From positions 3,252,601 to 3,316,600 of the forward strand of contig CM049319.1 of the NCBI GenBank assembly GCA_026874595.1: DNA of 64,000 nucleotides. The letters are read 5' to 3'. Position 1 is the stretch's first letter, and each line of letters begins with the position of its first letter. The stretch comes from Sipunculus nudus. Lineage: Eukaryota > Annelida > Sipuncula > Golfingiida > Sipunculidae. Below the pieces are notes generated by a model. The model saw only the letters and a list, made by a program, of their open reading frames with translations, was not told where the DNA came from and made no database searches. The translations under genes and the position numbers were made by a program. Below are positions 483 through 53,900 of this stretch, piece after piece.

Positions 483-3400
483 CTTTTCCGTCGCCCGAGG
501 CCAGAAGAGACCCAGGTAGAAGCATGCAACGAAAGGGGGCAGAATGTAGGAATACATGCTCTGTGTGTAGGTCCACAGCTGAGCTCCTTGTAGAGCCTGG
601 AGATACAAAATACAAACATACATTAAATTTGTAAGTATACCAAGAACAAAGCTATAGTTGTAGAGTTACTTTTTTTTAATTTGAAACTTAACTTTTTGAT
701 CACTTACTATATTACCTTCGCCAAAAAGTTGTTTCATACATAAGCAGGATAACGCAAAACCTATTTCATTGATAATTTATGGTTGAGTTTTAGCGTTTCT
801 AAAGGCACAAAAAAGAATGATTAAAGTTTGATTTCTAGATTATTTCTTGTCTAGGACAAATTAATAAAATTATTTTATTATTTTAAAATAATTTCGAGGG
901 TAACTTATTCAGAAGTCAATCTGTCCTTCCACTATATAGGATCTGTGAAATATTATACATGTAAATGCATCTGATCATATACTTACATGTACACATAATA
1001 AATCTGCCAGATATAAAACGATGGTAGAATCACTGAAATACCGAAACTCATCATAGTCATCGTCCCCATTCAATATACAGTGTCCCCAACATGTTAGGGG
1101 CCTGTCCTTAAAATACGGATTATGTAAGAACAATACCTGCAAAATCGGGAGCCAGAGTATGCTGACGCCCACTAGGACCAGGATATACACTCGTCCGACC
1201 ACCATGAGTTCCCGCTCCGAAGCCTTGGACCGGATCCTCTTGTAGATGTCCAGAGTAAACAGCGTGCTTGAGGAGTTAAAGATGGACGTCAATGAGCTCA
1301 TCAACGCCGACAGCAGCGCTGCCAACATCAGACCGCGTAAACCTTATCAGAACACAAAACAAACAAGTCACGTGATGTGAGAAGCATATATAGTCATAAG
1401 TTGAGATATTGATTGTGTTATGATAAAGGCTGCGGACCTATGACCGCAAGGTTGCGGGGTTGGCGTTGTTTTCTATCTCTTAAATAGGTCATAACCAAAA
1501 AGGCTGCCCCTCGTCACCCAGAAAGGTCTGCAAGCGACCACTGGCCGATGAAATAAGTTTCTGGAGCGTGAGTTTTTGAATTGAAGAGTTTAAATGCGGT
1601 AAAATACGTCATTTTTTGCATTTGTTTTAGAAGGGAAGATTTTATACAAATACAACTTTTATTTGATAATTATATTATTTCTACTCTCTCTTTTAGGGAT
1701 AACATCGAGTGTCCCCTAGAAAAGCACACTGGCACCATTCTGTCAAAGCGTAGAGTATATAAAAATTATAGTTTTAAAAAATGTTCTTGGTTTTGTGTGC
1801 AGAATCATGTGAACCATTCAATACCTTTTAAATAAACCACGTGACTTACCAGTAGGCAGTATTCTGGACACAAGGAAAGGGTAAGCGTTATTGGAACATC
1901 CACTCGGGTTCCCGCACACTTCCTGGCACTTCTGAGGGTTGGCACAGGCGACCTCGTCTTAAACGGAACGTAAACAATCAGTGTGAAACGTTCACAAATT
2001 ACAGAAAGATGTCAGACTATTCCCGTACCTAAATGCAGAACTTATTATTCACAAGGGTTGGAGAGTTTATTTCGATATCCTTATCTTGGGAAAAAAGGTT
2101 TTTATGAGTGGAACTTCTTAGGTATCCTTGTATACAAATCCATCGATTCCAGTTTATTTTTTTTTTCAAAATGTTGAATTTAAGCAGAACATAAGTCCAA
2201 GTTCACAGATTTGCCCCTGATGTTTAATTTTGATCTTGGCCATATTCAGTTGGAAATAGACGACGTAGAAGATTTTCTATTTTGCCTCATAATGTCCCTG
2301 TTTGCGTTAGATTTCCGAAATGGTTGATTTGGGTACAATATTAGTCCTAGGTCACAGATTTCCAGATTTCTCTTGCAATTGTCAGGCGACTGCACCTATC
2401 TAGTGTTTCTTGCTGATTTATTTTGGTCCGCTATCATGCAAGCCACACATTACCGCATTGGCCGGCCTTGCATTCAGTGCGGTTGCCAGAGCATAAAGGC
2501 GTGCCTGCATGGTGTCAAATTGTATATCTTCGTGGCTGCACTACGGGTTTAAAATGACATACTCAATGGCATATAATATAAGAAAATAATAATTTATGTC
2601 ATTTAATAAGTTGACATTATAGAATACTCACCTGGGTACAAGATTCTGCTTGTCATACCCGGGATGATGAAAAACAGGAACGGGAGAATCTTCAGGTAAG
2701 CCGCCAGCAACACGCCGCCCTTAGCGTGGGATACGCTCTTAGCCGACAGCGACCTCTGCACGCAGATCTGAAAAACAGTATGGATAGATGTAATACAATC
2801 TCCATTGTTCATATTTGCACTTTACCGTATATTAACGGGTAGTGACATGTTTCAGCTTGATTGATTATTTAAAAATAAGATCCCCGCCTTATTTTTTTCA
2901 ACAATAAAAAGAATTGAGGAGGTTTTTTGTGAATTTTTTTTTTTGTGGAGGTAACCGCCTCCATTTTTTTAATGCTAACTTAACTTAGTATATGTACATC
3001 TGCAGAATTTCATTCCGGTTTCGGACTGCGTGACAGGGGAGTGTCACACGCCTCCTCTCATTTTTAAATCCTGGCGTTAACTAGGCTTGGTGAATACTAC
3101 ACCTGCGGGCCCTGGGTGCGTAGTCGTCCTCATTGCTGGGTGATACCAGCGAGGTATCCCCCGAAAGGCGCACTCGTTTGTGAGTGAAAAATGGCCTTGG
3201 GGCAAGACCTTCCCATTAAGATTGCAGAGCGCTCACCCTGGGTGGGGCCGACCGTGAAAAATCTCTTGGAACCAACATCAGTTTTGCATTGCTCAAACGG
3301 GATTATTCTGTGTATTGTGACCAGTTGCATGGCGTCTCCCATGGGCTGCCAAACATTCTTTGGTAATCACATACATAGACGTACACAGAGTAGAAGACCA

Positions 3401-6400
3401 AAGGATGGAGTTCCATAGAACTCTGGGCCATTTAGCTTGGGTTCAGCAAGAAAGTTTTTTTTCCCTACCAGTACCTTTCGCAGACTATAAAACACCAGTC
3501 AGGAGCTCATGTTATTCCGAATTATAAATGGATGCGTTTTGACCAAAACGTCTATATTTTCTGTATATAGGAGGGAGAATGGAACTAATACGCGTATATG
3601 GCGATCGACGTTTTCCCGTTAGTTACCGTTAACTCTTAATTGCCTATCGTTTATTTGGAAAATCCAAAGATGGCGTTAGCTGAACTCCAATTTTGTAATA
3701 CTCCACGCTATGGTTACATATAAATTATTTTTTAGGTTACCAGATTACCAATTAACAATTTTATATAGTCTTTGTACGCATGTGATCAATTACCTTGGTT
3801 TTCACTGGTGGGATTAAAATGTTGTTAACGGTATAAGCGTGTTTTTTTTATCTGATTTATTTAACAATTTCTTTAAATCAAGCCTATATCTCATCCATTC
3901 ATGACAGCTTAGTTTTGGGAAACGATATTCTAATTTATCAGAACTAATTCAGGTGCATGGAACATCATAAGACAACATGTGCATTATTATTTTAATTAAT
4001 AAATATCAATAAATTACATAACATTAACAAAATTAGTTCAGAGCTGGACCGTTCTGGGCCTATTTATAATCTGATAGTCTATGTTGTCATGGGGCAACAC
4101 AGACTATCAAATTATAAATTGGTCCCGAACAGTCAAGTTCTGGATTATAACCAAATATATTTTAAAGGCAACCTGTTATATTTTATCATTCCAAAAATAT
4201 TAAGAGGAAATTGATAAAAACGATTTTAAAGCTTCGCAGGACGCAAAGTGCTCTCTCTTTGTCTCTTTGTCTCTTTGTCTCCCTGTCTGTCTCTTTCTCA
4301 CCTGGTCTGTGCACCACGCATTTGTTGCCAGGATGGTGAGGCCAAGAATCATTCCTGGCCACGGGTAGTCCGCCTCGGGAGCCCGGAAGATGTGGAAAGC
4401 GTCCTCCCGTGGCAAACCGCAAGTCCGGTTACCGTAAAGTGAGTAATCCAGAATAGTTTCATTCGATGCCGACAGAGGGTACTGGTTTGTTATGCCTTCC
4501 CATCCTCCAACACGGTTCAAGCCTTTGAACGAGAACAAGTTGTAGTAAATGTTGTATTCTCCACTAGGGGTCGCTTCGCTACAGTTACCCCATATTTTTT
4601 TGGAGCGAAGCGGAGCTAAGACCTCTGATGGAGAATGTAAATGTTGCAGTACAGCTGATTAAATGCATGATAGTGTTAAATCATAACTGCTATGCAAACA
4701 TATCATAATACTCTCCCGACTGGCATGACAACATAAATGTTCAAAAATAACTTATTTTTATAAAATAATACAAAACAAATCAGCAAAATGGGCGCTTATC
4801 TCTGAGTACTTCCATTTTTCGACTGTGTGGTGTTAATATTTTCAAACTGGCATACGTCCTTTGTAATCAAAATCGTATTTGAAATCATTACTGATAAATA
4901 TAATTTAACACATTTTGTTCTGTATAACCCAATATATGTAGTATTAGACGCATGCTTTATAAGTCAAAACTATTATAATATAAAACAATGATAAGTAAAT
5001 GATAAATTTAAAAAATAATAATAAATTACTATTGTAAATATTGGACAGTAATGAAATAATTAATATTTGGTGATAGAGAATGATATTAAGATCGTAAAAT
5101 GAAGAATTAAATCCAGAAATTAGAAACCTGAAAATAATGTTGTATTTTTTGCACAGATGAGTAAATAATTAGTTATTTCTACCTATTATTGCAGTGATGA
5201 ATGCCCCTATGATCAAGATGACGGTCTGAATGGCGTCCGTCCACAGTACAGCAGTGAGGCCACCTATTGGTGGAAAAGTGAAATATCCCTTGTAACGAAA
5301 AATGGTCACATGGTTTGCATGAACTGTTATCACGATAACAGCTTACTTAAACCCCTCCACCAAAATAAAATAGTTTAATATTTTGTATAATCATAGTGAT
5401 CCATACGTTACATAATTCACGAATAAGCCAAGATCGGACGCATTGAGTTCGTGGTCACGTTGTATGTATTATTTTATCTCGTAATTCATCTGCTACGGAT
5501 ATTTACAGATTAATTTTACTGATATATTTTAACACGTAAAATGCTACTCTTGTTCTGGTATTTTAAAACAGAGTCTGATCATTTTCTGCCGTACAAGTAA
5601 CTTACCGATCACCGTGTAGAGGGCCGTAACCCCAACGATCAAAACAACTGACAAGTATAAGTCCCATTTGAAGATCTCCGTGATAAAAATTGCTCCTGCA
5701 TACATCTGGCTCTATAGGAATAGAGGTATAAGAAGGTAAATTCATAATTGTGAACCATCATATAATCATTAAAAACATTGGATCGCATGTGATAATATAC
5801 TTAATTTATCTTTTTCTTGTTATCTCATCTGTTCATCTTTTTTTCCATTTTTAACAAACTAAATGTTCACTCAAGTGTACACTTTGTTACAAGTAAAAAT
5901 AAATTTGTGTTTGTGTAAAATATGAAACAACCATATGAAATCTGATAAAAAATACTGTTATATTGAATTATACCTGCGATAGACTGTATTCAAAGTTACA
6001 ATTTCAAGTAAAACTCTGATTAATAAGACAAACGACCTATAAGCCAAGAAAACTTTAATACTATCTCTCACGATTATATATGGTTTCGTCAGTCGGTAGC
6101 ATGAGGTCACCTAAGAGAACATTTTTTCATAATATACACTTTATTTACATGGATTGTACAACTTTATTATGAAAACTTATGCCAGCTTTTCATTTTCAAT
6201 ATAATTTTTTTGTTATGAACTTGAGAATATATATTAAAATTTAAAAAATAATATATATACAAACCGCAATCCAGGCCATGATGGCCATTGCTATGTTCAT
6301 CACGGCAAGTAGCACGCGGATCCTGTTTCCTCCGAATCGTAGTTTTAGGTACTGCGGCATGGTATAGCACTGAAATAGAAATTACCTTATATATAGCATA

Positions 6401-9400
6401 AACCCGGAGATAGGAGAGATTTAAACGGGAAGATGATATTGTTCAATATTTGTGTCCCCTTTATTTTTTTTTTTTTTTGGGGGGGGGGGGGCAGGCTTTT
6501 TATGACCCATTGAAAGCAAAACCATTGGATTTTTATTCTTCTTTTGATTTTATTATATTCTCCTAAAGTTCTGACTGCCTTTAGGATCTTATTTTCCAGA
6601 CTGACGTTTGATCAAGATAACAGTCACAGGTAATAGTCATAGGTAACAGATTTGCACCGGATATTTATTTTTTATCCTTATCTGAGTATCATTGACTCCT
6701 TACGAAAAAGGTAGTAGTCCTATAAGTAAAGCGCTGTGTAAAGAGCAAACAATCGGACTCGAACCGGCATCTCTCGGTCTACCAGTGAGTATTCAGATAT
6801 GCTAAAAACTCAACCACCAGTAATGGTCTTAGAGTCTTATGTTGGGCACACCTTTTCCGTGATATCAATATAAGAAAGCTAAATTTTGGAAGCGAATTGC
6901 ATGTTAATATTGAAGCAGAGTATATTTTATCTTACCCCACTGGCTCTGTACACAGGCAGGAATATCCAACCCAACGCCACCAACATTATCATGGCCTACA
7001 AAGACAACGCTACCAACATAAACATGGCCTACAAAGGCAACGCTTATAACATAAACATGGCCTACAAAGACAACGCTACCAACATAAACATGGCCTACAA
7101 AGGCAACGCTTATAACATAAACATGGCCTACAAAGACAACGCTACCAACATAAACATGGCCTACAAAGGCAACGCTACCAACATAAACATGGCCTACAAA
7201 GGCAACGCTACCAACATAAACATGGCCTTACAAAGGCAACGCTACCAACATAAACATGGCCTACAAAGGCAACGCTACCAACATAAACATGGCCTACAAA
7301 GACAACGCTACCAACATAAACATGGCCTACAAAGGCAACGCTACCAACATAAACATGGCCTACAAAGGCAACGCTACCATGATAAACAGGGCCTACAAAG
7401 ATAAGCCTACCAACATAAACATGGCCTACAAAGACAACGCTACCAACATAAACATGGCCTACAAAGACAACGCTACCAACATAAACATGACCTATAGAGA
7501 TAAGGCTACAAACATAAACATGGCCTACAAAGATAAGGCTACCAACATAAACATGGCCTACAGAGATAAGGCTACCAACATTATCATGGCCTACAAAGGC
7601 AACGCTACCAACATAAACATGGCCTACTGAGATAAGGCTACAAACATAAACATGGCCTACAAAGATAAGGCTACCAACATAAACATGGCCTATAGAGATA
7701 AGGCTACCAACATTATCATGGCCTACAAAGGCAACGCTACCAACATAAACATGGCCTACAAAGACAACGCTACCAACATAAACATGGCCTACAGAGATAA
7801 GGCTACCAACATAAACATGGCCTACAAAGATAAGGCTACCAACATAAACATGACCTACAAAGACAACGCTACCAACATAAACATGACCTACAAAGACAAC
7901 GCTACCAACATTATCATGGCCTACAAAGGCAACGCTTCCAACATAAACATGACCTACAAAGACAACGCTACCAACATAAACATGGCCTACAAAGGCAACG
8001 CTACCAACATAAACATGGCCTACAAAGGCAACGCTACCAACATAAACATGACCTACAAAGGCAACGCTTTCGACATAAACATGGCCTACAAAGACAACGC
8101 TACCAACATAAACATGGCCTACAAAGGCAACGCTACCAACATAAACATGGCCTACAAAGACAACGCTACCAACAAAAAAATGGCCTACAAAGGCAACGCT
8201 ACCTACATAAACATGGCCTACAAAGGCAACGCTACCAACATAAACAGGGCCTACAAAGATAAGGCTACCAACATAAACATGGCCTACAAAGACAACGCTA
8301 CCAACATAAACATGGCCTACAAAGACAACGCTACCAACATAAACATGGCCTACAGAGATAAGGCTACCAACATAAACATTGCCTACAAAGATAAGGCTAC
8401 CAACATAAACATGGCCTACAAAGATAAGGCTACCAACATTATCATGGCCTACAAAGGCAACGCTACCAACATACACATGGCCTACAAAGACAACGCTACC
8501 AACATAAACATGGCCTACAGAGATAAGGCTACAAACATAAACATGGCCTACAAAGATAAGGCTACCAACATAAACATGACCTACAAAGACAACGCTACCA
8601 ACATAAACATGACCTACAAAGACAACGCTACCAACATAAACATGACCTATAGAGATAAGGCTCCCAACAAAAACATGCCCTACAAAGACAACGCTACCAA
8701 CATAAACATTGCCTACAAAGATAAGGCTGCCAACATTATCATGGCCTACAAAGGCAACGCTACCAACATAAACATGACCTACAAAGACAACGCTACCAAC
8801 ATAAACATGGTCTACACAGGCAACGCTACCAACATAAACATGGCCTACAAAGACAACGCTACCAACATAATCATGACCTACAAAGACAACGCTACCAACA
8901 TAAACATGGTCTACAAAGACAACGCTACCAACATAAATATGGTCAACAAAGACAACGCTTCCAACATAAACATGGTCTACAAAAACAACGCTACCAACAT
9001 AAACATGGCCTACAAAGACAACGCTACCAACTTAAACATGGCCAACAAAGACAACGCTACCAACATAATCATGGCCTAAAAAGACAACGCTACCAACATA
9101 ATCATGGCCTACAAAGACAACGCTACCAACTTAAACATGGCCTACAAAGACAACGCTACCAACATAATCATGGCCTAAAAAGACAACGCTACCAACATAA
9201 TCATGGCCTACAAAGACAACGCTACCAACATTAACATGGCCTAAAAGACAACGCTACCAACATAAACATGACCTACAAAGACAACGCTACCAACATAAAC
9301 ATGGCCTACAAAGACAACGCTATCAACATAATCATGGCCTACAGAGACAACGCTACCAACATAATCATGGCCTACAAAGACAACGCTATCGATATAAACA

Positions 9401-12400
9401 TTGCCTACAAAGACAACGCTATCAACATTATCTTGGCCTACAAAGACAACGCCACCAACATTATCTTGGCCTACAGAGACAACGCTATCAACATAAACAT
9501 GGCCTACAGAGACAACGCTATCAACATAATCATGGCCTACAAAGACAACGCTATCAACATTATCATGGCCTACAGAGACAACGCCACCAACATTATCATG
9601 GCCTACAGAGACAACGCTATCAACATAAACATGGCCTACAGAGACAACGCTATCAACATAATTATGGCCTACAAAGACAACGCCACCAACATAAACCTGG
9701 TCTACAGAGACAACGCTACCAACATCAACATGGCTTCAGAGACAACGCAACCAACATAAACATGGCCTACAGAGACAACGCTACCAACATAAACATGGCC
9801 TACAGAGACAACGCTACCAACACAAACATGGCCTACAGAGACAACGCTACCAACACAAACATGGCCTACAGAGACAACGCTACTAACATAAACATGGCCT
9901 ACAGAGACAACGCTACCAACATAAACATGGCCTACAGAGACAACGCTACCAACATAAACATGGCCTACAGAGACAACGTTACCAACATAAACATGGTTTA
10001 CAGAGACATCGCTACCAACATAAACATTAGTAATATACGCTTCATGATGTAAAATTGAAAATTTAAATTGCACAATAACATATAGTTATAAATATAGTAA
10101 AATAAACAGAAGTATGAGATGCTACAAATTAAAGCAAAAAGCACTGCAAATAGAAATCAATGTACCTTGTTATAATACTTTACTCATTTTTTAAGAAAAT
10201 ATTATTCTGGTGATTTAAACAAATTCAATTTCAACCATAGCAGTATAATTAGAATACACAAATTAATTCTTCGAAAGTATTTCAAAATTCACATAAACCC
10301 TTAAAGGGCTAATTTTAATTTTATATATTTGTTCAAAAATTTAGCACATAGGGAATAAGGAATCCATAAAATGAACATGTACAGCAGTAAAAAATGTTTG
10401 CTTCAGTTCTTGTTTTCGTGTATTTGTGTGAAAATTTTCAGGAAAAGTTATTTATTAAAAATATACTTAAGCATTAAAAATACGGTATCAATTTTACAAC
10501 AGCATATTTACTTGTGATGGCAGATACCCAGACGTCCACCTGAGACACGAGACTATTTGGGTGAGCGTGTGTGTACGACTTTGCGTGTGTGCGCCGTGTG
10601 CATGTATGCGTGCGCGTGATACCTACATGCCACTCAAACATGACGACAGATATACCGGAAGCCGCCGCAGACCCGGCAAGACCAATAAACATGGGAGCGC
10701 CGATATTGGTAGCGAAAGTAGACGTGCCAATCTAGGTACCAAAAATAATGTTAGAAGATAATAATATTAGGTAATACACAACGACACCCTGTCTTTAAAA
10801 TATAAAAGTAAAATTTTTATTGTTAAAAATAAAACAATAAAGAAATACATCATGTAAAATATATTAAGTCAAATAAATTCTATGACCAAAGCTGCTCATG
10901 AAAAAACTGAAGCGATACTTAGACCGCCCAGACAGAGTACCTCCTGCACTTTAGCAACAATATTTTATATTAATTCAGAGGCGCGAGAGTTAGGCTACGT
11001 TCTTTTATCGTATACGGCTTCTTTCTTCATCACTATTCGGACAACGCTTATTACAGGTCTAGGACTTACCTTTGAAGTTTAAAATAAACTCACCAGCCAC
11101 CAGTTGCTGCCCTGTCCAGCCAAGAAATAGCCCTGGGCATTTCCTGTATTGGCTTTACATGTTGCCTAGAAGAAATTATACAAGTATATAGGTATGGATA
11201 AAATGTGTTTATATGTTTATATATTTTTTTATATTGTATTTTATTTTATCATATTATGTTACGTGTATATTATGCTATAATATATTACGTTGTAATACAT
11301 TTTAATATGTTATTTCATGTTACATCATGATATAATTATATTATATATTATTATATTATATCATTTTATATTATATTTATCAAAATGACTGAACGCTTAA
11401 ACATTTTATATTAAAAGTCTATTGTAAAGGTACTAGGTACTGAAATTTTATTAAATTGTTCCTTCCTTGGCCTCCCCTAATTAAAACACATATGTTGCTG
11501 TATACTAGGGATGCGCCGCTGCAATATACTCTACCTATATTGTGGAATAGATTTTTCACAAGGTTTCAACAAAAATTAAACCGCATCGTTCCCCTGCATG
11601 GTTCTTGAACAGTGAAAATCTTGAGGACATATCTAAAAGTTCTAAGACTTCTGTAAACCCCCTCACCGGGTGGAACCTTATGGGTTCTACCTAGAACCCC
11701 GTTTTATTGCTCTGCTATTTCCTGCAAGCCGGTTTTTAATGGTTTATTTGGCACACTTTAGCCCTATATGCTGAATGTCATAATTCTTAGGTTGTTTAAA
11801 AATTAGTCTATAATTATATGATATCAGACGATGGCAATTTGAATACTGCCATGTTGATTAACCGTTATTCATCTTATTGTTTTGCATTTTACCCTTCCTT
11901 AATTTTCTGAATGTCACATCATGCACAAGTAGGTTATAAATAAAAAGATTGGTATTTATTATATGTGCCGTAATAATCTTGCCCTTATTAAGATTATCAA
12001 ATAAAACATTAATGAAAAATAAACAGACCAGTTATTCAAATGTGTGTGGAGATATAAAGCCATGCTCAGCAACATCAGACGGCCGGTAAAAAGTTAAACA
12101 AACGAAGTACTTAAATATGAGCTGTTTCGTTTTATAAATGAGTTTGAAAATAAACCTTATAAAAAAGCTTTACTTCTTTTTCGTTTGTGTGTTTATGCTT
12201 GTTCCCAGGTGAACAGAGCACTGTGTGAACCACAGGCCGCACAGTAGGTAGTTCATCGCATAAAGAGATAACGGTACCCCCTACACGGGGTATGACAACA
12301 CTTCTGTATTGATTACATGTCATCAGAGTAGTGATCATTCCCCGTTCTCTCATGTAGGCATCCTTATCACCGCCTGTATGATAGGGAACTGACAACGAGA

Positions 12401-13495
12401 AAGCATGTATAGTGTTTGTGTCATACGCCAGACCACCAGACCAATGTGTAGAAATTATCTTCAGATATTTCATTTATGAAGAATTTAAGGCGTTAGTTTA
12501 GTATAAGCAATGTTTGCTCAATATATTTACCATATGACAAAAAAATAACACGCTCTTGATTTAAAAGTGAGAAGTCGTGCAGGGTACGTTTTTGGTGAAA
12601 TGCTTCAGTTTACACACCAAAAAAAATGCAATGCTCAAATCTTACGTTAAAAGTGATTCATAATCATGGTTTTAAAAATAATGATTTTTCCGATGTGGAA
12701 AATTTTAACATCTTAATGTCAAAAAACTATTTCAAACATTATATCGAAACAAAAACCTCTATGCATGAGTAAACCTTGTGTTTTGAGCTATATGTTTGCA
12801 AAAATATTTTCATTAACATAAGGTTGCTTTGAGTGAGCATATCTCTTTAATATCCTATGTAAGAACGAAAGATTTCTCATTTACAGGAATGATATCTCTA
12901 CAGATCCCCAATGAATGGTTATAATATGCACTGGGAGGGTGAGCTATATCGGACCGGGGTGTAGTACGTGATTACATTCTGTGTAAACGTATCCCGAGCA
13001 ATTTCGTCGGACGAGGCATGTGCTCGTTAATTGCTCTCTAGCAGTTCTATTAATGATGTATGTTTATTTAGATAAGGTCTGATAACCTAGTTTGGAATGC
13101 CTTTCTGATAAGAATCTGTAACTTTGATGTATAATGTAGATATATTCTTCCCTCGTATTAAAACATATAAATACAGTAAAATCCCGCCAGGAAGACGACA
13201 ACCCCTTTATGACCACGACCTTTAACTCTTGCTAGTGGTTTAAATTGCCAACAAAGCCACCTGTGGCAGTCTCGCATGCGGGGTCCACTGTGTGATATTG
13301 TATGCAGGGTTTTATTTTGTTGTATTATACGCAGGGTTTTTACTTTGTCATATTGTATGCGGAGTCTTACTTTTTTATTTGGAATGGGTTTTTAGTTTTG
13401 TCTCTTACCCAAAATCCGACGCCGAGCACCAAAGCAAAATAAACCACCAGAGCCAGTATGTCCGGCCAGCCGAACTCCGGTGTCGCCGTGGTCAT
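483..13495 (-). CDS. SLC5 copy A: SGLT-type sodium/solute symporter, 3' end outside window
   Basis: Multi-pass plasma-membrane Na+-coupled symporter of the SLC5 (SGLT) family. Exons, in transcript order: 13409-13495, 11094-11165, 10627-10731, 6936-6995, 6265-6369, 5606-5711, 5183-5263, 4302-4522, 2632-2767, 1850-1957, 1137-1342, 483-596. All have GT/AG borders and the reading frame is continuous (phases 0,0,0,0,0,1,1,0,1,1,0). Family landmarks: [12 protein letters not shown] (exon 3), [14 protein letters not shown] (exon 5), ADYPWPGM and WCTDQ (exon 8), VQRSLSAKS (exon 9), [19 protein letters not shown] (exon 11), FYLGLFW (exon 12). The start is the ATG at 13495, aligned with copies B and C. 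By comparison with B and C, exons 13-15 are missing only because the window ends. The residue matching human SGLT1 His83 is Met and that matching Tyr290 is Ala, so glucose should not be assumed as substrate. Intron 3 is mostly a 33-bp minisatellite. Confidence 0.94.
2933..3270 (-). mobile_element. 5'-truncated copy of the same SINE in intron 8 of SLC5 copy A
   Basis: Read on the minus strand it matches the SINE at 32894-33253: cggtcggccccacccaggg, acgcacccagggcccgcagg, gtccgaaaccggaatga and the terminal tggaggcggttacctcc. The tRNA head is missing. The insertion borders the sequence aaccaacatcag, which copy C keeps without the element (46270-46282), so the insertion postdates the A/C duplication. 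Confidence 0.7.
4245..4301 (-). repeat. Imperfect GA-rich tract at the exon 8 donor of SLC5 copy A
   Basis: The counterpart of the pure GA tract in copy C. Sense strand CAG/gtgagaaagagacagac, followed by interrupted GAGACAAA units. The position is the same, so the purine tract predates the A/C duplication and was expanded or purified in C. Confidence 0.85.
4553..4642. repeat. Imperfect hairpin repeat beside exon 8 of SLC5 copy A
   Basis: The arms tattctccactaggggtc and gacctctgatggagaatg, with gcttcgct and agcgaagc inside, form a ~90-bp imperfect palindrome about 30 bp upstream of exon 8 in the transcript. Copy C lacks it at the equivalent place, so it is probably a small MITE inserted in A. 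Confidence 0.6.
6751..6820 (-). mobile_element. tRNA-like SINE fragment in intron 4 of SLC5 copy A
   Basis: The minus strand shows a B-box GGTTCGAGTCC (6755-6765) and an A-box-like TGGTTGAGTTTTTAGCA. The adjacent word aagcgctgtgtaaagagca (about 6728-6746) recurs in intron 12 of copy B (about 27586-27604). It does not fold convincingly as a working tRNA. A counterpart lies at the same place in copy C. Confidence 0.6.
6936..6995 (-). CDS. Exon 4 of SLC5 copy A, whose acceptor seeds the minisatellite
   Basis: This 60-bp exon encodes [20 protein letters not shown], the 20-residue segment that precedes the conserved TMPQYL stretch. On the sense strand the acceptor reads TTGTCTTTGTAG, followed at once by GCCATG. 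The same intron/exon junction is repeated directly upstream about 90 times. The first 24 bases of the exon are therefore the last, diverged unit of the array. The donor is GGG/gtaag. Exon length and codon phase are identical to exon 4 of copy B (21778-21837), which has an ordinary acceptor (cattgcag) and no array. Confidence 0.92.
6973..10029 (-). repeat. 33-bp splice-acceptor minisatellite in intron 3/exon 4 of SLC5 copy A
   Basis: About 92 head-to-tail copies of a 33-bp unit. On the sense (minus) strand each unit joins the end of intron 3 (TTGTCTTTGTAG) to the start of exon 4 (GCCATGTTTATGTTGGTAG). Variants are regional: GGC and GATAAGG forms in the exon-proximal two thirds, and CAGAGAC forms (sense TTGTCTCTGTAG) in the distal third near 9340-10000. 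A few units have lost the AG, for example around 8940 where the plus strand reads gtcaacaaag. The period is a multiple of three, so long spurious ORFs run on both strands. In the exon 4 frame each unit ends in TAG. Confidence 0.95.
12270..12329 (-). other. 60-bp intron 1 block identical between SLC5 copies A and C (A copy)
   Basis: By eye, 60 of 60 bases match 58718-58777 in intron 1 of copy C, within introns that otherwise show substitutions and indels. It contains a short inverted repeat, taccccctacacggggta. It could be a conserved regulatory or RNA element, a remnant of a mobile element, or a short gene-conversion tract. Confidence 0.6.
13292..13375 (-). repeat. Three ~30-bp tandem copies next to the exon 1 donor of SLC5 copy A
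   Basis: Three imperfect copies built around the plus-strand words ttgtatgcagggttttatt, attatacgcagggttttta and attgtatgcggagtcttac. They lie about 35 bases inside intron 1. Copy C has a single equivalent (around 59522-59550), so the tandem expansion is specific to A or was lost in C. Confidence 0.7.
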
Positions 13496-20343: not shown

Positions 20344-23300
20344 ATGGCGGCAACAGCTTCGATTAACTGGCTGGACATACTGACACTAGTGGTCTATTTT
20401 GCCCTAGTGTTTGGAACTGGTTTCTGGGTAAGTAACCATTACAAGAGTTAAAACGAATCTACGATTATTAATATTAGATCTTGTTGGAAGTTAAAAAATT
20501 TGGAATAATATATTTCATATACAAAATTTTGGCGTCAGATTTATTTCAAACATTTGTAAGAATAATCATTCACAGTATAAGTCCTGAAACGGGCTTTTTC
20601 AAAAAACACATTAATCTTTATCGATAAGGACCTTATATCTTATATATATAGGCAACATGCCGGGCGAAAACCAGAAGCGCCAAGGGATATTTTCTGGCGG
20701 GACAAAGCAGCAACTGGTGGCTGGTGAGTGTAATGTAAAATTTCGCCCAGTCAGAGAACCTTTTTAGTATAGAATATTAATCATGATTAGAATATGATAA
20801 TGATTTAATATTAGCAGTCATTGCACTATTGTAAAATTGTTCCTCTGTCAAACCATGTTTATTTTCATCCTGTGGTCTTTGCTATTTCACGGTATTACAT
20901 ATATTAAATACTAACATATAGTAAATAAGTTTACATAAAGTAAATAATTAAATCAAAGCTGATTGATAACATGTTCTTCTGATAACTTCATTTATAATTA
21001 TATCCATGAACAGAACCCAACATAACCATATTGACATTTCCTTTTTATTTCAATACAGATTGGTACCTCCACATTTTCTTCAAACATTGGCGCCCCAAAT
21101 TTTATCGGAATGGCGGGGTCCGCGGCCGCTTCCGGGATCGCTGTTATAATGTTTGACTGGCACGTGAGTTCTTTTTATTAAAGATTAACCTCTTTTGAGA
21201 TGTTATCCTCATCCTTGTGTTTACATCATGCTACTCCCTTTAAGCAGTGATTATTCGATGCTTTGTCCTTTTGTTAAACTACTGCTTGGTATAATAGGGT
21301 TTGCCGGGTTTCACTACCAGGCGGCCGATATTTTTACGGAATTAATTCAAACAATCTCAGCTTGCATCAACGGATAGCAATAATGGCCGATGTATCGTAT
21401 GAAGCCAGCGAAAATGCTGTGGTACCTGTGTTAACCTTAAGCTGTTTTTCCTTTGCCCTGTCATACGCCGATAGAATACTACAGTTAACCTCTATCGTGC
21501 GAAATAGATGAAGGGAATCTGAAAAATGTTGTATTTGCGGTGCCAGTGTATGCAGACTGTAATTACATTCCGTCGATCCATGTCAGAGATATCGATAAAT
21601 CGTGTTGATCACTGACAGGGACATTGGCAATCAAACCGTCTTCTTGTTTAGATCAACACGTCGATATATTGTAGAAACCCTGATCTTTTGCGTGACATTT
21701 CTGTTTTTTTTTTTTTAATTCGACTTCATTAGAATAAAAAAATTTAATAATCTGACATGTCATAATTTGCATTGCAGGCCATGCTTTGCCTCGTAGCCCT
21801 GGGTTGGATTTTTCTGCCTGTGTACCGAGCCAGCGGAGTGAGTATTTTTTTTATTCTTTTTCCATAGAAATAAATACGAAATAGGTCAGTTAAATCTTAC
21901 AACTGAACATATCATCCACACTAATACTAGTAACATAGATGAAATCAAAAGTAAAAGATGAAGATATATTGCATGTGTTTTCTCAAGGCAACAGGTGTTT
22001 TTCACTTATAATACCTATAAGTGATATATGTTATCTAAATATACGACCCTTGCATTAGGGAAGGCAGAATATGCAGTGAAAATATTTTGTCTAATTTTCA
22101 TATATATCCTTCACTTATGTATTTCATTTACAAAAAAAACCATATTTCTATTTTACATTACCGTATCAATATATATGAGATGGAATAACTGCTCAAACCA
22201 TTCGTACAAATAAGTATTATTGTTATTGTTGTTGCTATTATTGTTATTATTATTATTATTATTTTTTCAGTGTTTCACCATGCCGCAGTACCTAAAACTC
22301 CGGTACGGCGGTAACAGAATCCGTGTTTTACTGGCCCTCATGAAGATCATAGTAACGCTCTTCGGCTGGACAGCGGTAGGTTCAGCCATCACATCGTCAC
22401 TTCTATGTTGAATTTTACATATGGGGACCTTTAGATGTGACACATGACCCTCTTGAAGATTCAGTCACTCTGATTAAATAGTTTCCAGTGCTGACCAGAT
22501 GACGTCATAAATCACGTGACACTTCATGTGGTGTAATCCTGGTTAAGTGCAGATATGATTTAGTTTCGCATTTAACTTTTGTTAATGAACTTAATAAATA
22601 CATATATTTTATCAGCAATTGTATTTTTTTTACCCAGAGCCAAATGTATGCCGGGGCTTTGTTCATCCAGGAAACGTTACAGTGGAACTTGTACTTGTCT
22701 GTGGCATTAATTCTTGTGATCACAGGATTATACACGGTTATTGGTAAGTGGAACAGGAGCACATCCGGTCCTGCGCAGTCGAAACAGACGACCAAACTCC
22801 AAAACTCGTATAATTTTAAAATGTTATTCCAAAAAAATATATGCTACACTTCCTTGGAGGTAAAAGGTATGGATGATTAATTATATGCAAACGATCATAT
22901 TTATCTTTTGACACGCATACAACTGTCCACAAATTACCTAATGTCCTTAAAATGTCGCAATCCTCAGTAGGGTAAATGAAAACCGAAAACGTATTTTTCT
23001 AGCAAACCTTCGCACACTGCCACAGAAGCAAAATTAGTAAATATTTGCGTATTCTTGGAGTCAAGACTGTAAGATATCACAGGTCACAGGAATCAACATG
23101 AAGAAATCCCATGAATATAGAAGGGGACTTGCTCCCATACTTTCCCCGTATAACCACATCCTTAGACATACTCTGCAACCTGTATTGAAAAGTCCATAAA
23201 GAAAACCACACACACATCAACACACTCACATATGTATATAATTTTCCTATATTGTCTACAGACTATATCCGTTCTGCACCTAGTGTTCGTTATTTAACCC

Positions 23301-44461: not shown

Positions 44462-47400
44462 ATATATATATTGTATATATATATATAATAATAAAAAACA
44501 TAGGTCTTACCTTATACAATTCCCTCTTCTATTAGTTCGGGAGTCCAAAACATCCGACCGTGAACAGTTAACCTCATTAGTTCTAAGAACGTACGTATGC
44601 GGGTCGTAATCGTCGGAACATCCGGTTAACACCGGTTCCATCAGGAACATTGTACTAAGTTATGGTCAGGGCACGAAACTTCAAGTGTCAGATGGAACCT
44701 CCTAACGGAGAAAAGAGTTCTAGATGGCAATATGAAAGTTCTTAACAGAACCATCAAGAACCCTTTTTTAGAATGTAGGGCCTTGTCGGTGAGGTAACAT
44801 GACTGTTATTTGCAGACCCACAAGAATGGGGGGGGGGGGGGGAGGGAAGGGGGTTTAGTCGGTTCAATAACGGGGCCCGCCCCGGCCAGGAATTTCCTTT
44901 AGGGAAAATGTTATAAACTGTAGAAGGCTCAATTTTTGTATTGATATAATATTGTCAGGGTAATCTCAGAGGGCCTGGACGGGCCAGGACTGTGTCCTTT
45001 ATAAGGCTCTAGACAACGCAAAAAAAGTTTGTTTTTCCATTGTGCTCAGTCTTACTTCAAATTGGAGGAAACCGGAGGACCAGTAGAAATCAGACGAATT
45101 AGGATGGGCTTAAACGAAACACTCTATAGTTACACTGTTATAACAGCCACACCGGGGATCGATCCCAGTTCGCCAGCGGAGAGTTTTATGCCATTGTCCA
45201 GGTCTTAGGGTTCACATGCAGTATCACTGTGACAATGCCAGTAAAAAAAACCTGTCTCCATCAGTAAATTTGAAATACACCACTTGACTTGCAAGTAGGC
45301 AGCATTCCTTATATTTAAACAACGTGACTTACCTGTTTGCAGTATTCATTTCAAATAAAAAACGAGACTTAATGACCAATAGGCATTACTTCTTTTAAAC
45401 AAAGCACGTGATTTACTTGTAGCAAGTACTCCTTTTAGATAAATTAGGTGACTTTCAAGTAGGCAGTACTTCTTTTAAAAAAATTACGTGACTAACCACA
45501 AGGCGGTATTCCTTTCATATAAACCACGTGACTTACCAGTAGGCAGTATTCTTGACACCAGGTAGGGGTAGGCGTTATTGGCACATCCGCTCGGGTTTCC
45601 ACACACCTCTTGGCACTTCTGTGGGTTTGCACAGGCGACCTCGTCTGAAACGGAATGTATATAGTCAGAGTGTAACGTTCACAAAATAACAGAACAATGT
45701 CGGACAATTCAAAAACCAAGGAAAGAACTTATTTACATCTACGGAAATAATTTTCATTCTCAGACTTATTTATATCATGGTTTATTTTGATTTATCAGCA
45801 TATAAGCTTCACTTCACCGCACCGGCGTGCTTAAGAAGACTCGGATACCCGAGTATGATTATATGAAATTAATTATGGTAAAGCTGAACTAGGTTTAAAT
45901 GACGCACATACATACATTATGGGGTGGACATTAAACACACCAAGTGTTTGTAGCAACGTAGGCCAATGTTATTTCGAGACTATTATGTTCTTCATACGGT
46001 ATTATTATAGAATATTTACCTGGGTACAAGATTCTGCTTGTCATTCCCGGGATGATAAAGAACAGGAACGGGAGAACCTTCAGGTAGGCCGCCAGTAGGA
46101 CGCCGCCCTTAGCGTGGGATACGCTCTTAGCTGACAGCGACCTCTGTACGCAGGCCTGGAAAAATATTATAGCCAGATACATCATCGTCCTCAGTTATTC
46201 ACATTTGACAGTTCTTTAAATAGAATAAGAGACTAGCGGACTAATATGAGATGAGCCACCCAAGACAAGAACCAACATCAGATGTGCATTGCTCAAACGG
46301 GATTATTCTGGGTATTGTGACCAGGTGTCATGGCGTCTCACATGGGTTGCCAAACATTCTGGGTAATTACAAACATACACATACATAGAGTAGAACGACC
46401 AATGGTTGGAGTTTAACAGAGCTCGGCAGGCGTCATTTTGCCTAGGATTAAGCAAGACAGTAATATTTTTCCGAGTGACACTTGTCGATAACTGTAAAAC
46501 ACTAGTCAAGAGCTTAGATTATTCTGAAATAAAAATAGATGCGTTTTAAACGGAAAGTTTATATTTTTCATATACATATGTAATAAGAGGAAAAATTGAA
46601 TTATTACGTGTATCTGGATCTCGACTTTTCTGTTATTAACTCTAAACTCTGTCAAAGAATTTAGCTTCATTCTCATGTAAAACGCATTATTGTCACCAGA
46701 GAACTGTCACTTATTTTTTTTTTATTATTATCTTGGAACTGTACATTTAAGTAAGGAGAGTATAATCAGATGATTGGTACTATAAATTATTGTATATTAG
46801 TATGCCGTATCATGTATCGAAGTTAGACTGGGAACGTAGGTTCAGGGAACTCAGGTGTTTCATTTGATGTTGGTTTAAGTTCAGTCATAATTCAGTGAGA
46901 ATTGTTCCTTGTCAGATTCGTCAGCGTTAGTCTAGACGGTTTCCTGAAATAAGATTGTTAACTATAGATTTCAAAGGCAACGCACCTGCAACATAATTTT
47001 CTCACAATTTTTGTCTTGGGGGCGTTTTCATTTAAATATTCATGCATTGAACAACAGGTATAATAATAGTAAGGCGATAGGCCAACAGCGTTTCGGATGT
47101 GTGACGTAGGCATTAGCATATCAGCTGAAGAAGCGAGAGTAAAGGCACATTTCTCATCATCATCTGCGCGCTATATGGTGGCGTATGGCAAATTTGTAGG
47201 TCCAGGGTTGTCTGTAAACTGATCAGCTAAGGGACGGTGTATTGTATGTCAGAGTCTTCGGGCGGCCAACATAATCTTAGTAACGGACGTGTTAGTTGTT
47301 TTTATAGAAAGACTTATAAACAGCCGATGTTTATCTGCCGTGGTGAAGCCCATGCAGCGAACAGTCCAGAGGACAAATGATATGCTGAGCTGCGTATGTG

Positions 47401-50900: not shown

Positions 50901-53900
50901 GGACATTAACCCATTATTTTTCAAGAATAGAATGAGCTACCATCCCCATATTTTATGCAAAAATCTGTCATATATCAAATGTTCTGGGATTGAGCGTCTT
51001 GTGGCGCCACCTGCAATAACTTTTAAAATAAAATTTTACCTTTAGAAATCTTCTTCTCTGAAATCATTCAGCCAAATTGTTCAACATTTCACAGAAATTA
51101 TCCCAGAGATAAGCTCCCTCAAGTTTGTTCAAATGATTTGATGAATTTAGGCCGAGTCACAGGAATTTGAATTTGGCCAAATAGGATTACTGACATAACG
51201 ATCTCAGAAACGACAGGAGCAAGTTTTGTGCAAATTTTGGTCACATGACTCATATTTGAAAATGCAGTTTTTGTGGTGCCACCTATATCGATCCTTTTTT
51301 TACGGACAAAAAAACTCATAATTTTAAACGCGTTAAACTGTAGACTCCTTATAATTTTAGACGTGTTATAATTTAAGACTCCTTCAGTTTAAAATGTTTC
51401 ATGGTGAAACTGTCAAGCTGAATCGTTCAATTTTTTCCAGTATTATCCTAGGATAGGGTTCTTTTAATTGTATAAGAATAGATTGGATTTGTTGATTTTT
51501 GATAGAGTCACAGAAAGCTGAAGTTGGTCTTGCGGTCATTAGTAAGCCTATTTCAAAACCAGGAACAGGTCAAGAGTTTACTTATAGCAGCCAGGTACAG
51601 GTCAAGAGTTTACTCAGCGCAGTTGCTGGAGCAAGCAATTCCTTCCAGTTCACTTGGGGCAACTGCCTTTCTCACCTAAGCCTGGCTAGCCCAAGCATCT
51701 TTGATGGCTTTCTCTTTCACAAGACTGGAGTCGCCACCTTCAATGACTTTAACACAATGTATGTCCCTGCTTATTTCTTAGGAGAAATTTAATATGTCAG
51801 CCTGAAATCGCGCATATTTATACATAACGGATTACTTTGTCGTATACAAGACTGGTGGTGCCACCTACAATAGTTTTTGCACAGTTTTTTGTCCCTGCTT
51901 ATTTCTTAAGAAGGGTTTGATATATCAGCCTGAAATTGGGCATATGTATACATCTCGGATAGCCACCTAGAAGCATTTTTGTGTTGTGTGCACCCATGCC
52001 AGTATTTCAGCAGTGATGTATCTGTAATTGTTTTTTGTTTAAATTGCTTAGTACTTGCATTGTTCATGTACATATATTACACATGTCTTTGAAAAGTATT
52101 GGTTCAGCATTGAAGCATTATATTTGGTGTATATATCACATTGCACAGGTACGCATTAGGCCTGTAGGCCTTGTTTATCCTGATCTGATTTTCCCGGTAA
52201 TACACTATATAGCCTTATAATCCAAATCAAATTTTCCGAAAACTGCTCTTATGAACTAAGGATATGGCCATACCCGGTTGCTTTAAATTGTTTCATGATA
52301 TTTACATTACATCACATAGGACACCAAATAGTTTCTTTATTATGTATTTACGGAAAATGGTCATTAGACACATCGTATTATAATCGTTATGGATTTTTAA
52401 ATTTAGTTTGGAAGTAGTTACCTCCACTTTTCTAATGTATTTTAACTGTTCCTTGGCGGGCACTGAAGTGGTGTATCTTCCTGTAAGATTTCGCAGCATG
52501 CAATTATCCCAGGGGTCGCTTTGGGCCAGCTAACACTAGTATATACTGGGAGAAGGGTTGTGCTTATCACGCAACTAGTCATTTCGAGTGTCCCAACGAA
52601 TATAAACCCAGGCCATCGATGGTGCGGGGGGAAGCCAAGTACCTGTCACTGTCGGATTCGGACCCGCAGCTCCCGTTATACCAGATCAGTGTTCAGATAT
52701 TCTAACAACTCAGCCTTAGATTAATAAATTAGGAGGACCTTGCCCAAGAAATTTGAACAACATGACTAAACGTTACATGTAAATGTTAATGCAGAAATAT
52801 TTTTGTATCTTACCCCACTGGATCTGTACACAGGTAGAAGAATCCAACCAAACGCTACCAACATAAACATGGCCTACAAAGACAACGTTACCAACATGAA
52901 CATCGCCTACAAAGACAACGCTGCCAACATTAACATGGCCTACAAAGACAACGCTGCCAACATAAACATGGCCTACAAAGACAACGCTACCAACATAAAC
53001 ATGGCCTACAAAGACAACGCTACCAACATAAACATGGCCTACAAAGACAACGCTACCAACATTATCATGGCCTACAAAGACAACGTTACCAACATGAACA
53101 TCGCCTACAAAGACAACGCTGCCAACATTAACATGGCCTACAAAGACAACGCTGCCAACATTATCATGGCCTACAAAGACAACGCTACCAATATAAACAT
53201 GGCCTACAAAGACAACGCTACCAACATAAACATGGCCTACAAAGACAACGCTACCAACATTAACATGGCCTACAAAGACAACGCTACCAACATAAAAATG
53301 GCCTACAAAGACAACACTACCAACATAAACATGGCCTACAAAGACAACACTACCAACATAAACATGGCCTACAAAGACAACGCTACCAACATTAACATGG
53401 CCTACAAAGACAACCCTACCAACATTAACATGGCCTACAAAGACAACGCTACCAACATAAACATGGCCTACAAAGACAACACTACCAACATTAACATGGC
53501 CTACAAAGACAACACAACACTACCAACATTAACATGGCCTACAAAGACAACACTACCAACATAAACATGGCCTACAAAGACAACGCTACCAACATTAACA
53601 TGGCCTACAAAGACAACGCTACCAACATTAACATGGCCTACAAAGACAACGCTACCAACATAAACATGGCCTACAAAGACAACACTACCAACATTAACAT
53701 GGCCTACAAAGACAACGCTACCAACATAAACATGGCCTACAAAGACAACGCTACCAACATAAACATGGCCTACATAGACAACGCCACCAACTTAAACATG
53801 GCCTACAAAGACAACGCTACCAACATAAACATGGCCTACAAAGACAACGCTACCAACATAAACATGGCCTACAAAGGCAACGCTACCAACATAAACATGG

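What the first reader, a model, noticed from the sequence alone, without database searches (positions are those of the whole stretch)
6973..10029. A minisatellite built from a 3' splice site: about 92 tandem acceptors before exon 4 of SLC5 copy A
The 33-bp unit is not random intron DNA. On the gene's strand it joins the last bases of intron 3 (TTGTCTTTGTAG) to the first bases of exon 4 (GCCATG...). Almost every unit keeps a complete acceptor-like set: a TTTAT branch-point-like word 23 nt before the AG, a pyrimidine stretch, and TAG. Splicing must ignore some 90 equivalent acceptors and use the exon-proximal one, or the array gives many transcript ends. Scanning from a branch point upstream of the array would choose the wrong AG, so the working branch point should lie inside the last unit or two. 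I know of no described case of this form; that is my recollection, not a search.
Basis: partly seen in the sequence, partly recalled or inferred. Interest (0 to 1): 0.93.

Follow-up and report, generated by a model that had tools for sequence, protein, structure and literature searches.

The report
Splice-acceptor minisatellite in sugar-transporter genes
Before one small exon of a sodium/sugar transporter gene, the signal that marks the start of the exon has been copied in tandem about 90 times, and by sequence only the copy touching the exon can give a working protein; arrays of this kind are already described in lancelets as "mirages", and here they recur in several genes of an animal genome that does not look like a lancelet's.

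Summary
Window 6972-10027 is a 33-bp x 92.6 array; each unit is about 24 nt of exon-4 start plus 9 nt of intron-3 end, in an intact SGLT-like gene (A). Gene B and the duplicates A' and B' carry the same array; the unit was found nowhere else in the 1.43-Gb genome. 354 of 364 units keep the terminal AG and most score like real acceptors; the arrays hold almost no usable donors; 0 of 364 unit starts gives an open in-frame exon 4. Only the exon-proximal AG yields a protein collinear with human SGLT1. B keeps a normal acceptor at the array's far end; A has lost it, so A should depend on an array-born acceptor. Exon definition is the likeliest selector; no RNA was available. 'No described case' is wrong: lancelet 'mirages' are minisatellites over intron-exon boundaries (PMC3087553, PMC3902484), and human ABCA7 has a donor-containing VNTR (PMC5954066). 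What I did not find described is the size, the lost ancestral acceptor, and recurrence in other SLC5 genes, SLC6 genes and at donors of a probably non-lancelet genome.

The parts
6996..10027 (-). 33-bp acceptor minisatellite of SLC5 gene A: 91 full units upstream of exon 4, plus a partial far unit
6936..6995 (-). exon 4 of gene A (60 nt, phase 0 at both ends); its first ~24 nt are homologous to the exon part of the unit
   Evidence: collinear with human SGLT1
6996..7028 (-). exon-proximal unit of A: TTTAT branch-like word, internal GTAG, TCTTTGTAG| acceptor (score 8.65, above 99.4% of background AGs)
10627..10731 (-). exon 3 of gene A, donor CAT|GTAGGT
10028..10060 (-). far edge of array A: intron joins directly to ATGTTTATG; the ancestral acceptor (kept in B) is missing here
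483..13495 (-). SLC5 gene A, exons 1-12 open; the gene probably continues beyond window position 1 (not followed)
52874..56771 (-). 33-bp acceptor minisatellite of SLC5 gene B (118 units), same consensus as A (TRF gives 52851-56777, which includes exon sequence and the end of the far acceptor)
52814..52873 (-). exon 4 of gene B ([20 protein letters not shown])
56772..56786 (-). retained ancestral-type acceptor at the far edge of array B (ACTCTTTCCTTGTAG|GCCATG), best-scoring AG there (10.77)
45269..45551 (-). 40-bp x 7 tandem repeat of the exon-10 donor of gene B (CTGCCTACTG|GTAAGT...), later copies decayed; same array in B', not in A or C
21778..21837 (+). exon 4 of SLC5 gene C: same exon and junction with an ordinary acceptor and no array (internal control)

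Best explanation
The array is a splice-acceptor minisatellite of the 'mirage' kind. In an ancestor of genes A and B, a segment covering the last ~9 nt of intron 3 and the first ~24 nt of exon 4 was tandemly duplicated and then grew and turned over, probably by unequal exchange. Because the duplicated segment spans the junction, most units carry a TAG acceptor and a branch-like word. The intact exon still sits behind the last copy, so the gene survives as long as splicing uses that last AG. I infer that exon 4 is recognised by exon definition: its own downstream donor (the array has almost none) pairs across 60 nt with the nearest acceptor, and the branch point lies in the last unit or two. Products of upstream units would meet an in-frame stop, usually within 11 codons, and would probably be degraded. 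Shown: array structure, acceptor-grade units, lack of donors, stops, collinear protein, purifying selection, the acceptor kept at the far end of B and absent in A. Inferred: exon definition, branch-point position, decay of mis-spliced RNA, the order of events.
For: Unit = exon-4 start + intron-3 end. 354 of 364 units keep AG; 0 of 364 unit starts gives an open in-frame exon. Terminal AGs score like real acceptors (median 8.65; leave-one-out median of 45 real acceptors 7.01; exon-proximal A 8.65, B 9.24). Only 3 of 2005 GT sites in the arrays and ~80 nt upstream reach the 25th percentile of 36 real donors. Exons 1-12 are open in A, A', B, B', C and C'. dN/dS is 0.31 A-B, 0.12 A-C, 0.03 A-A'. 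The A protein aligns to SGLT1 (7sl8, E 2.9e-158; human by recall) without a gap at the exon 3/4/5 joints. C, D, E and F have the same 60-nt exon 4 behind an ordinary acceptor. B/B' keep a normal acceptor at the far end, A/A' do not. Copy number differs between the two blocks: 92.6 vs 105.6, 118.9 vs 52.9. [quoted passage not shown]
Against: No RNA evidence of any kind. In A about 60% of the terminal AGs score as high as or higher than the exon-proximal one, and in B and B' the far ancestral acceptor scores best, so sequence strength does not explain the choice. The AG positions (4 and 6 deviations among 364 units; median over positions 10) rank only 7th and 11th of 33 in conservation, so selection on the unit acceptors is not shown. 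A-B dN/dS is 0.58 over exons 3-5 (90 codons). The acceptor score is a 45-site matrix of mine, not MaxEntScan; in paralogue E the exon-proximal exon-5 acceptor scores only 4.33 (90th percentile of background).
Confidence: 0.72

Rival explanations
1. The array is a splicing brake: many transcripts use upstream units, gain an in-frame stop and are degraded, so array length tunes transporter output.
For: Acceptor-grade units; no upstream choice gives an open in-frame exon (0 of 364); copy number varies between the two blocks; in human ABCA7 VNTR length correlates with exon-19 skipping and lower expression (PMC5954066 passages).
Against: No RNA data; 10 of 364 units have lost the AG and positional conservation does not single out the acceptor; in lancelets mirages are reported not to disturb splicing.
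Confidence: 0.18
2. Exon 4 is skipped, or A and B are non-functional copies, so the choice of AG is irrelevant.
For: Exon 4 is 60 nt with phase 0 at both ends, so skipping would keep the frame; B exon 5 is only 61% identical to A; A-B dN/dS over exons 3-5 is 0.58.
Against: 12 of 12 exons matched are open in A and B, and dN/dS over 443 codons is 0.31 (A-B) and 0.12 (A-C); exon 4 is collinear with SGLT1.
Confidence: 0.05
3. The intron is removed in steps (recursive or nested splicing through the array).
For: Some units read AG|GT (TAG|GTCATG), as a recursive site would.
Against: Only 3 of 2005 GT sites in the four arrays and ~80 nt upstream reach the lower quartile of 36 real donors.
Confidence: 0.03
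4. The array is a repetitive coding sequence, for example the open + strand frame ([11 protein letters not shown])n.
For: Open + strand frames of up to 944 codons in B and 475 in A; 33 is a multiple of three.
Against: Changes at antisense codon positions 1, 2 and 3 number 118, 220 and 247, not a coding pattern (counts; the assignment to codon positions is mine); the sense frame has a stop in 345 of 354 full-length units.
Confidence: 0.02
5. The array is an assembly or read-error artefact.
For: Tandem arrays are hard to assemble (general knowledge).
Against: Four arrays in the assembly have different unit counts and partly different unit types at the same junction; A and A' share 33 unit types out of 56 and 58.
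Confidence: 0.01

Closest known systems
Lancelet 'mirage' minisatellites (Adh3, globin BflGb6/BflGb9, troponin C; related repeats in PGBD5)
   [quoted passage not shown] units of 10-72 bp (Adh3) and 150-160 bp (globins); many but not all units keep AG/GT; length differs between haplotypes; concerted evolution (PMC3087553 abstract and passages; PMC3902484 one passage).
   Different: Globin BflGb6 has 6 or 3 units; here 52-118 (the unit numbers of Adh3 I did not see). Here the far ancestral acceptor is absent in one lineage, and the host genome gives no GFP or sialyltransferase match, so it does not look like a lancelet's. Splicing was tested there by RT-PCR and is untested here.
Human ABCA7 intron-18 VNTR
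   Same: 25-bp VNTR that includes the exon-18 splice donor; about 12 to 427 units; the exon-proximal donor is the canonical one and retention of one unit is a minor isoform (PMC5954066 abstract and passages).
   Different: The unit carries a donor, not an acceptor, and its first two bases are the donor GT; there length correlates with skipping of the next exon.
Internal tandem repeats at exon-intron boundaries of human segmental duplicates
   Same: Tandem repeats at exon-intron boundaries of recently duplicated genes (PMC2812944 abstract and passages).
   Different: There the repeats are discussed as making novel introns and alternative transcripts, not as dozens of equal acceptors.
Intron gain by tandem duplication; NAGNAG tandem acceptors
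   Same: Duplicated splice signals (search listings with the start of abstracts only).
   Different: One duplication, or acceptors 3 nt apart; not a minisatellite of acceptors.

Membership tests
mirage minisatellite (splice-junction minisatellite) | tandem repeat whose unit spans an exon-intron boundary | tested here: met
   unit = exon-4 start + intron-3 end; the array abuts exon 4
mirage minisatellite (splice-junction minisatellite) | many but not all units keep the splice signal | tested here: met
   354 of 364 units keep AG
mirage minisatellite (splice-junction minisatellite) | length instability between haplotypes | tested here: inconclusive
   92.6 vs 105.6 and 118.9 vs 52.9 units between the two ~81-kb blocks; whether these are duplicates or unmerged haplotypes is unknown
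mirage minisatellite (splice-junction minisatellite) | concerted evolution of units | tested here: met
   identical consensus in all four arrays; best lagged similarity at 24 (B), 25 (A') and 29 (B') units, at 4 in A; within-B divergence 0.056
mirage minisatellite (splice-junction minisatellite) | regular splicing not disturbed (RT-PCR) | not testable with these tools
   no RNA data; the protein-level argument is
mirage minisatellite (splice-junction minisatellite) | host is a lancelet (all cases under this name that I read of) | tested here: inconclusive
   no GFP and no sialyltransferase match, but the tool warns that these negatives do not show absence; a muscle-myosin exon's best PDB hit (3i5f, squid by recall) leads Myosin-6 entries by 1 bit
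SLC5 / SGLT (host gene) | SSF domain and SGLT-like sequence | tested here: met
   PF00474 E 8.2e-114; SGLT1 7sl8 E 2.9e-158
ABCA7-type donor VNTR | unit contains a splice donor | tested here: not met
   3 of 2005 GT sites in the 33-bp arrays and ~80 nt upstream are donor-grade; the separate 40-bp repeat at 45269-45551 does contain donors

The most novel reading that the evidence does not exclude
Splice junctions are birthplaces of minisatellites in this genome: acceptor or donor arrays arose repeatedly in unrelated genes (SLC5 exon 4 in A/B; SLC5 exon 5 in D, E, F and G with units of 41, 45, 41 and 25 bp cut at different points; two SLC6 exons; donors in B and behind one open frame of an unidentified gene). 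In the A lineage the array has replaced the ancestral acceptor, so a conserved transporter now takes its 3' splice site from a fast-turning minisatellite. This would extend mirages beyond lancelets and make them a genome-wide class.
Probability: 0.5. Interest if true: 0.8.

Novelty: new member of a known kind. Interest (0 to 1): 0.62.

Why it matters
It is a natural experiment on how the spliceosome picks one AG among ~90 near-identical acceptors: the nearest AG to an exon's own donor, against first-AG scanning from an upstream branch point. The pair B (far acceptor kept) and A (far acceptor absent) makes the two models separable by sequencing cDNA. If the recurrence is general, splice junctions are hot spots for minisatellite birth, a source of intron growth and possibly of intron gain, and mirages are no longer a lancelet peculiarity.

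Tried and rejected
Coding array: rejected. Recursive or nested splicing: rejected on lack of donors. Dispersed satellite: rejected; 306 of 306 genome matches at <= 3 mismatches lie in the four arrays (count, places counted). Selection on unit AGs: not shown. Inter-locus exchange between arrays A and B: suggested by unit divergence 0.091 against synonymous divergence 0.254, not proved. Organism: GFP, sialyltransferase and molluscan haemocyanin families gave no match, a C1q search was twice not answered, a paper search by assembly size found nothing; organism unnamed. Arrays without an obvious exon: C14:3384186 (45 bp x 10.3); L040 (24 bp x 9.3, intronic). L054 (22 bp x 16.5) has units like its exon's acceptor but ends ~130 bp upstream of the exon match; counted as not spanning. 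In paralogue E the boundary predicted for exon 3 has no AG and was dropped from the acceptor set. A C. elegans paper on minisatellites near alternative splicing (PMC4039745, passages) concerns repeats near exons, and I saw no acceptor units in those passages. Paper searches: (all ten used; PMC open licences only; only the best 15 of 96, 25 of 42, 12 of 58 and 15 of 99 papers were listed).
Full report
What is there. The window carries three SLC5 (SGLT-like) genes: A and B on the minus strand, C on the plus strand. The 64-kb window is C14:3252601-3316600 of a 1.43-Gb genome. Around it the order is B', A, C, B, A', C': a ~81-kb block [B A C] present twice. Aligned pieces outside the arrays (kept if over 700 bp and 93% identity) are mostly 94.5-97.5% identical, with one of 98.3% (1.4 kb) and one of 99.5% (7.8 kb). 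Whether this is a tandem duplication or two unmerged haplotypes was not settled. A, B, A' and B' each have a 33-bp array ending at exon 4, with 92.6, 118.9, 105.6 and 52.9 copies; C and C' have none. The unit plus 6 nt, at up to 3 mismatches, occurs 306 times in the genome, all on one strand, and the same count in the four arrays is 306 (44, 66, 115, 81).

Anatomy of the unit. In transcript sense the consensus, identical in all four arrays, is GCCATGTTTATGTTGGTAGCGTTGTCTTTGTAG. The first ~24 nt match the start of exon 4; the last 9 match the end of intron 3. I parsed 364 units (A 91, A' 103, B 118, B' 52) and dropped a partial far unit of A, and a partial and one divergent far unit of A'. 354 of 364 keep the terminal AG and 330 of 364 keep an internal AG at positions 18-19. 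Of the 354 units without a gap, 345 contain an in-frame stop when read from their own start. Reading from each of the 364 unit starts to the end of exon 4, 0 give an open in-frame extension. A YTNAY word with its A 23 nt before the terminal G is present in 287 of 364, and together with the terminal AG in 281.

Strength. I built a 23-position matrix from 45 acceptors of genes A-F outside any array (one predicted boundary, exon 3 of E, has no AG and was dropped; duplicates were left out). Leave-one-out scores of these have a median of 7.01 and a minimum of -1.34; 1363 other intronic AGs of A, B and C have a median of -2.19, a 95th percentile of 5.43 and a 99th of 8.10. Terminal AGs of the arrays, picked by sequence pattern (334 in all), have a median of 8.65 in each array, and 96-100% per array exceed the background 95th percentile; the remaining AGs have medians of -4.4 to -4.6. 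The exon-proximal AG scores 8.65 in A and A', 9.24 in B and 8.94 in B'; C's ordinary exon-4 acceptor scores 11.35. The share of terminal AGs that equal or beat the exon-proximal one is 0.60 (A), 0.62 (A'), 0.15 (B) and 0.21 (B'). So most units are acceptor-grade by sequence, and strength does not mark out the last one. Donors are lacking: 3 of 2005 GT sites in the arrays and ~80 nt upstream reach the lower quartile of 36 real donors of A, B and C.

The gene works as a gene, and only with the last AG. A, B, C and their duplicates each have 12 matched exons without a stop. All their acceptors have AG at the predicted boundary, and the 36 donors of A, B and C have GT (in C the first exon was matched from one codon before the ATG, and B exon 2 is one codon shorter). 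dN/dS (exon 2 left out for the length difference) is 0.308 A-B, 0.118 A-C, 0.172 B-C, 0.032 A-A', 0.195 B-B' and 0.435 C-C' (the last on seven changes); for exons 3-5 alone A-B is 0.583. The A protein hits Pfam SSF (8.2e-114) and SGLT1 7sl8 (2.9e-158; human by recall) with no gap at the exon 3/4/5 joints. Paralogues C, D, E and F have the same 60-nt exon 4 after an ordinary acceptor.

History. At the far end of arrays B and B' stands a normal acceptor, CTCTTTCCTTGTAG|GCCATG, the best-scoring AG there (10.77 and 10.54). The homologous intron in A breaks off about 70 nt earlier (68 alignment columns) and joins directly to ATGTTTATG, and A' has the same edge. The simplest reading is that the array grew between the ancestral acceptor and the exon, and that the A lineage later lost the ancestral acceptor with its pyrimidine tract. 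A therefore has to take its acceptor, and most likely its branch point, from the array. Unit divergence between A and B is 0.091 although synonymous divergence of the genes is 0.254; exchange between the arrays or constraint could explain this, and I could not decide.

Recurrence. I then looked at other genes. SLC5 paralogues D (L029), E (L030), F (L031) and G (L037) carry arrays of the exon-5 acceptor, with units of 41, 45, 41 and 25 bp (10.6, 8.0, 20.9 and about 13-21 copies) that cut the junction at different points. In G the units are degenerate. Of ten distinct SLC5 genes whose exon-5 acceptor was seen (A-G, L033, L035, L036), four have an array there; of seven whose exon-4 acceptor was seen (A-F, L033), two (L032, with no clear exon 4 or 5, is not counted). 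L035, L036 and L037 were chosen because of exon 5, after D-F. For the SLC6 family I fetched 20 short stretches (21 exon matches), picked by hand near the top of the family list among the large contigs, not strictly in order; one (L057) has an 89-bp acceptor array of at least 6.8 copies. Of the first 8 myosin exons of that list, none has one. A further SLC6 exon, L034 (117 bp x 3.3), was fetched because its repeated matches stood out in the listing. Donors: exon 10 of B and B' (40 bp, ~7 copies), and a 42-bp x 12.8 array after an open frame that ends at CTG|GTGAGT at C14:3164272 (no Pfam family). Of 7 arrays (unit >= 15 bp, >= 4 copies) in 36 stretches fetched without knowing of arrays in them, 5 span an exon edge, against 0.56 expected from unit length and edge count (P 3.9e-5); with only D kept of D-G, 2 of 4 (P 0.034) (a hand-made table; L034 and the window genes are left out; in D and E the first hint came from tblastn matches to the exon-5 start).

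How it most likely works. A duplication that spans an acceptor leaves an intact acceptor and exon behind the last copy, so it is tolerated if splicing prefers the exon-proximal site. Exon definition gives that preference: the only good donor downstream is exon 4's own, and the nearest acceptor is 60 nt away. This is inference. In human ABCA7, where a VNTR carries donors, the exon-proximal donor is the canonical one and retention of one unit is a minor product of about 2% (PMC5954066 passages; there other alternative forms are common in brain), and lancelet mirages are reported not to disturb splicing (passages).

What is known. The kind is known: 'mirages' in lancelet Adh3 and globin genes (PMC3087553, abstract and passages read) and, as stated in PMC3902484 (one passage read), troponin C, with similar repeats in PGBD5. 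The original Adh3 and troponin C papers were not read. I therefore file the finding as a new member of that kind. In the ten searches made (four listings were capped) I saw no report of such arrays outside lancelets other than the human cases named, and none with a lost ancestral acceptor; most subscription papers are not in that library.

Host. The genome gives no match to GFP (PF01353) or sialyltransferases (PF00777), both of which lancelets have as far as I recall, and none to molluscan haemocyanin (PF14830), which most bivalves lack as far as I recall (the tool warns that these negatives do not show absence). A muscle-myosin exon hits 3i5f best (194.1 bits; squid by recall) but Myosin-6 entries closely (193.0). 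A bivalve or other protostome is plausible, not shown.

Noticed in passing
window 45269-45551: 40-bp x 7 repeat of the exon-10 donor of SLC5 gene B; a copy ~204 nt downstream (CAG|GTAAGT, score 13.2) scores better than the exon-proximal donor (11.9).
   Followed up: yes
L029 1527-1947, L030 2247-2608, L031 2806-3646, L037 393-912: Exon-5 acceptor arrays in four other SLC5 genes, with different units (41, 45, 41, 25 bp).
   Followed up: yes
L057 595-1201; L034 149-536: Acceptor arrays in two SLC6-family genes (89 bp x >= 6.8; 117 bp x 3.3).
   Followed up: partly
C14:3164272-3164810 (in L027): 42-bp x 12.8 array of a donor (CTG|GTGAGTACAC) behind an open frame of an unidentified gene.
   Followed up: partly
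C14:3212637-3369069: ~81-kb block with three SLC5 genes present twice in tandem, long pieces mostly 94.5-97.5% identical, two of 98.3% and 99.5%; duplication or unmerged haplotypes.
   Followed up: partly
window 52803-56368 and 7256-9079, + strand: Long antisense open frames (up to 944 codons) of ([11 protein letters not shown])n across the arrays; no coding pattern of changes.
   Followed up: yes
C2:44849337-44852248: Four separated matches to the same stretch of the myosin head (profile positions ~109-153), possibly mutually exclusive exons.
   Followed up: no
C61, C62, C83, C89, C131, C72: Long SNF (PF00209) matches on small contigs, four of them with identical scores; perhaps prokaryotic contamination.
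   Followed up: no
arrays A (6996-10027) and B (52874-56771): Unit divergence between A and B (0.091) is far below the synonymous divergence of the genes (0.254) although the consensus is identical.
   Followed up: partly
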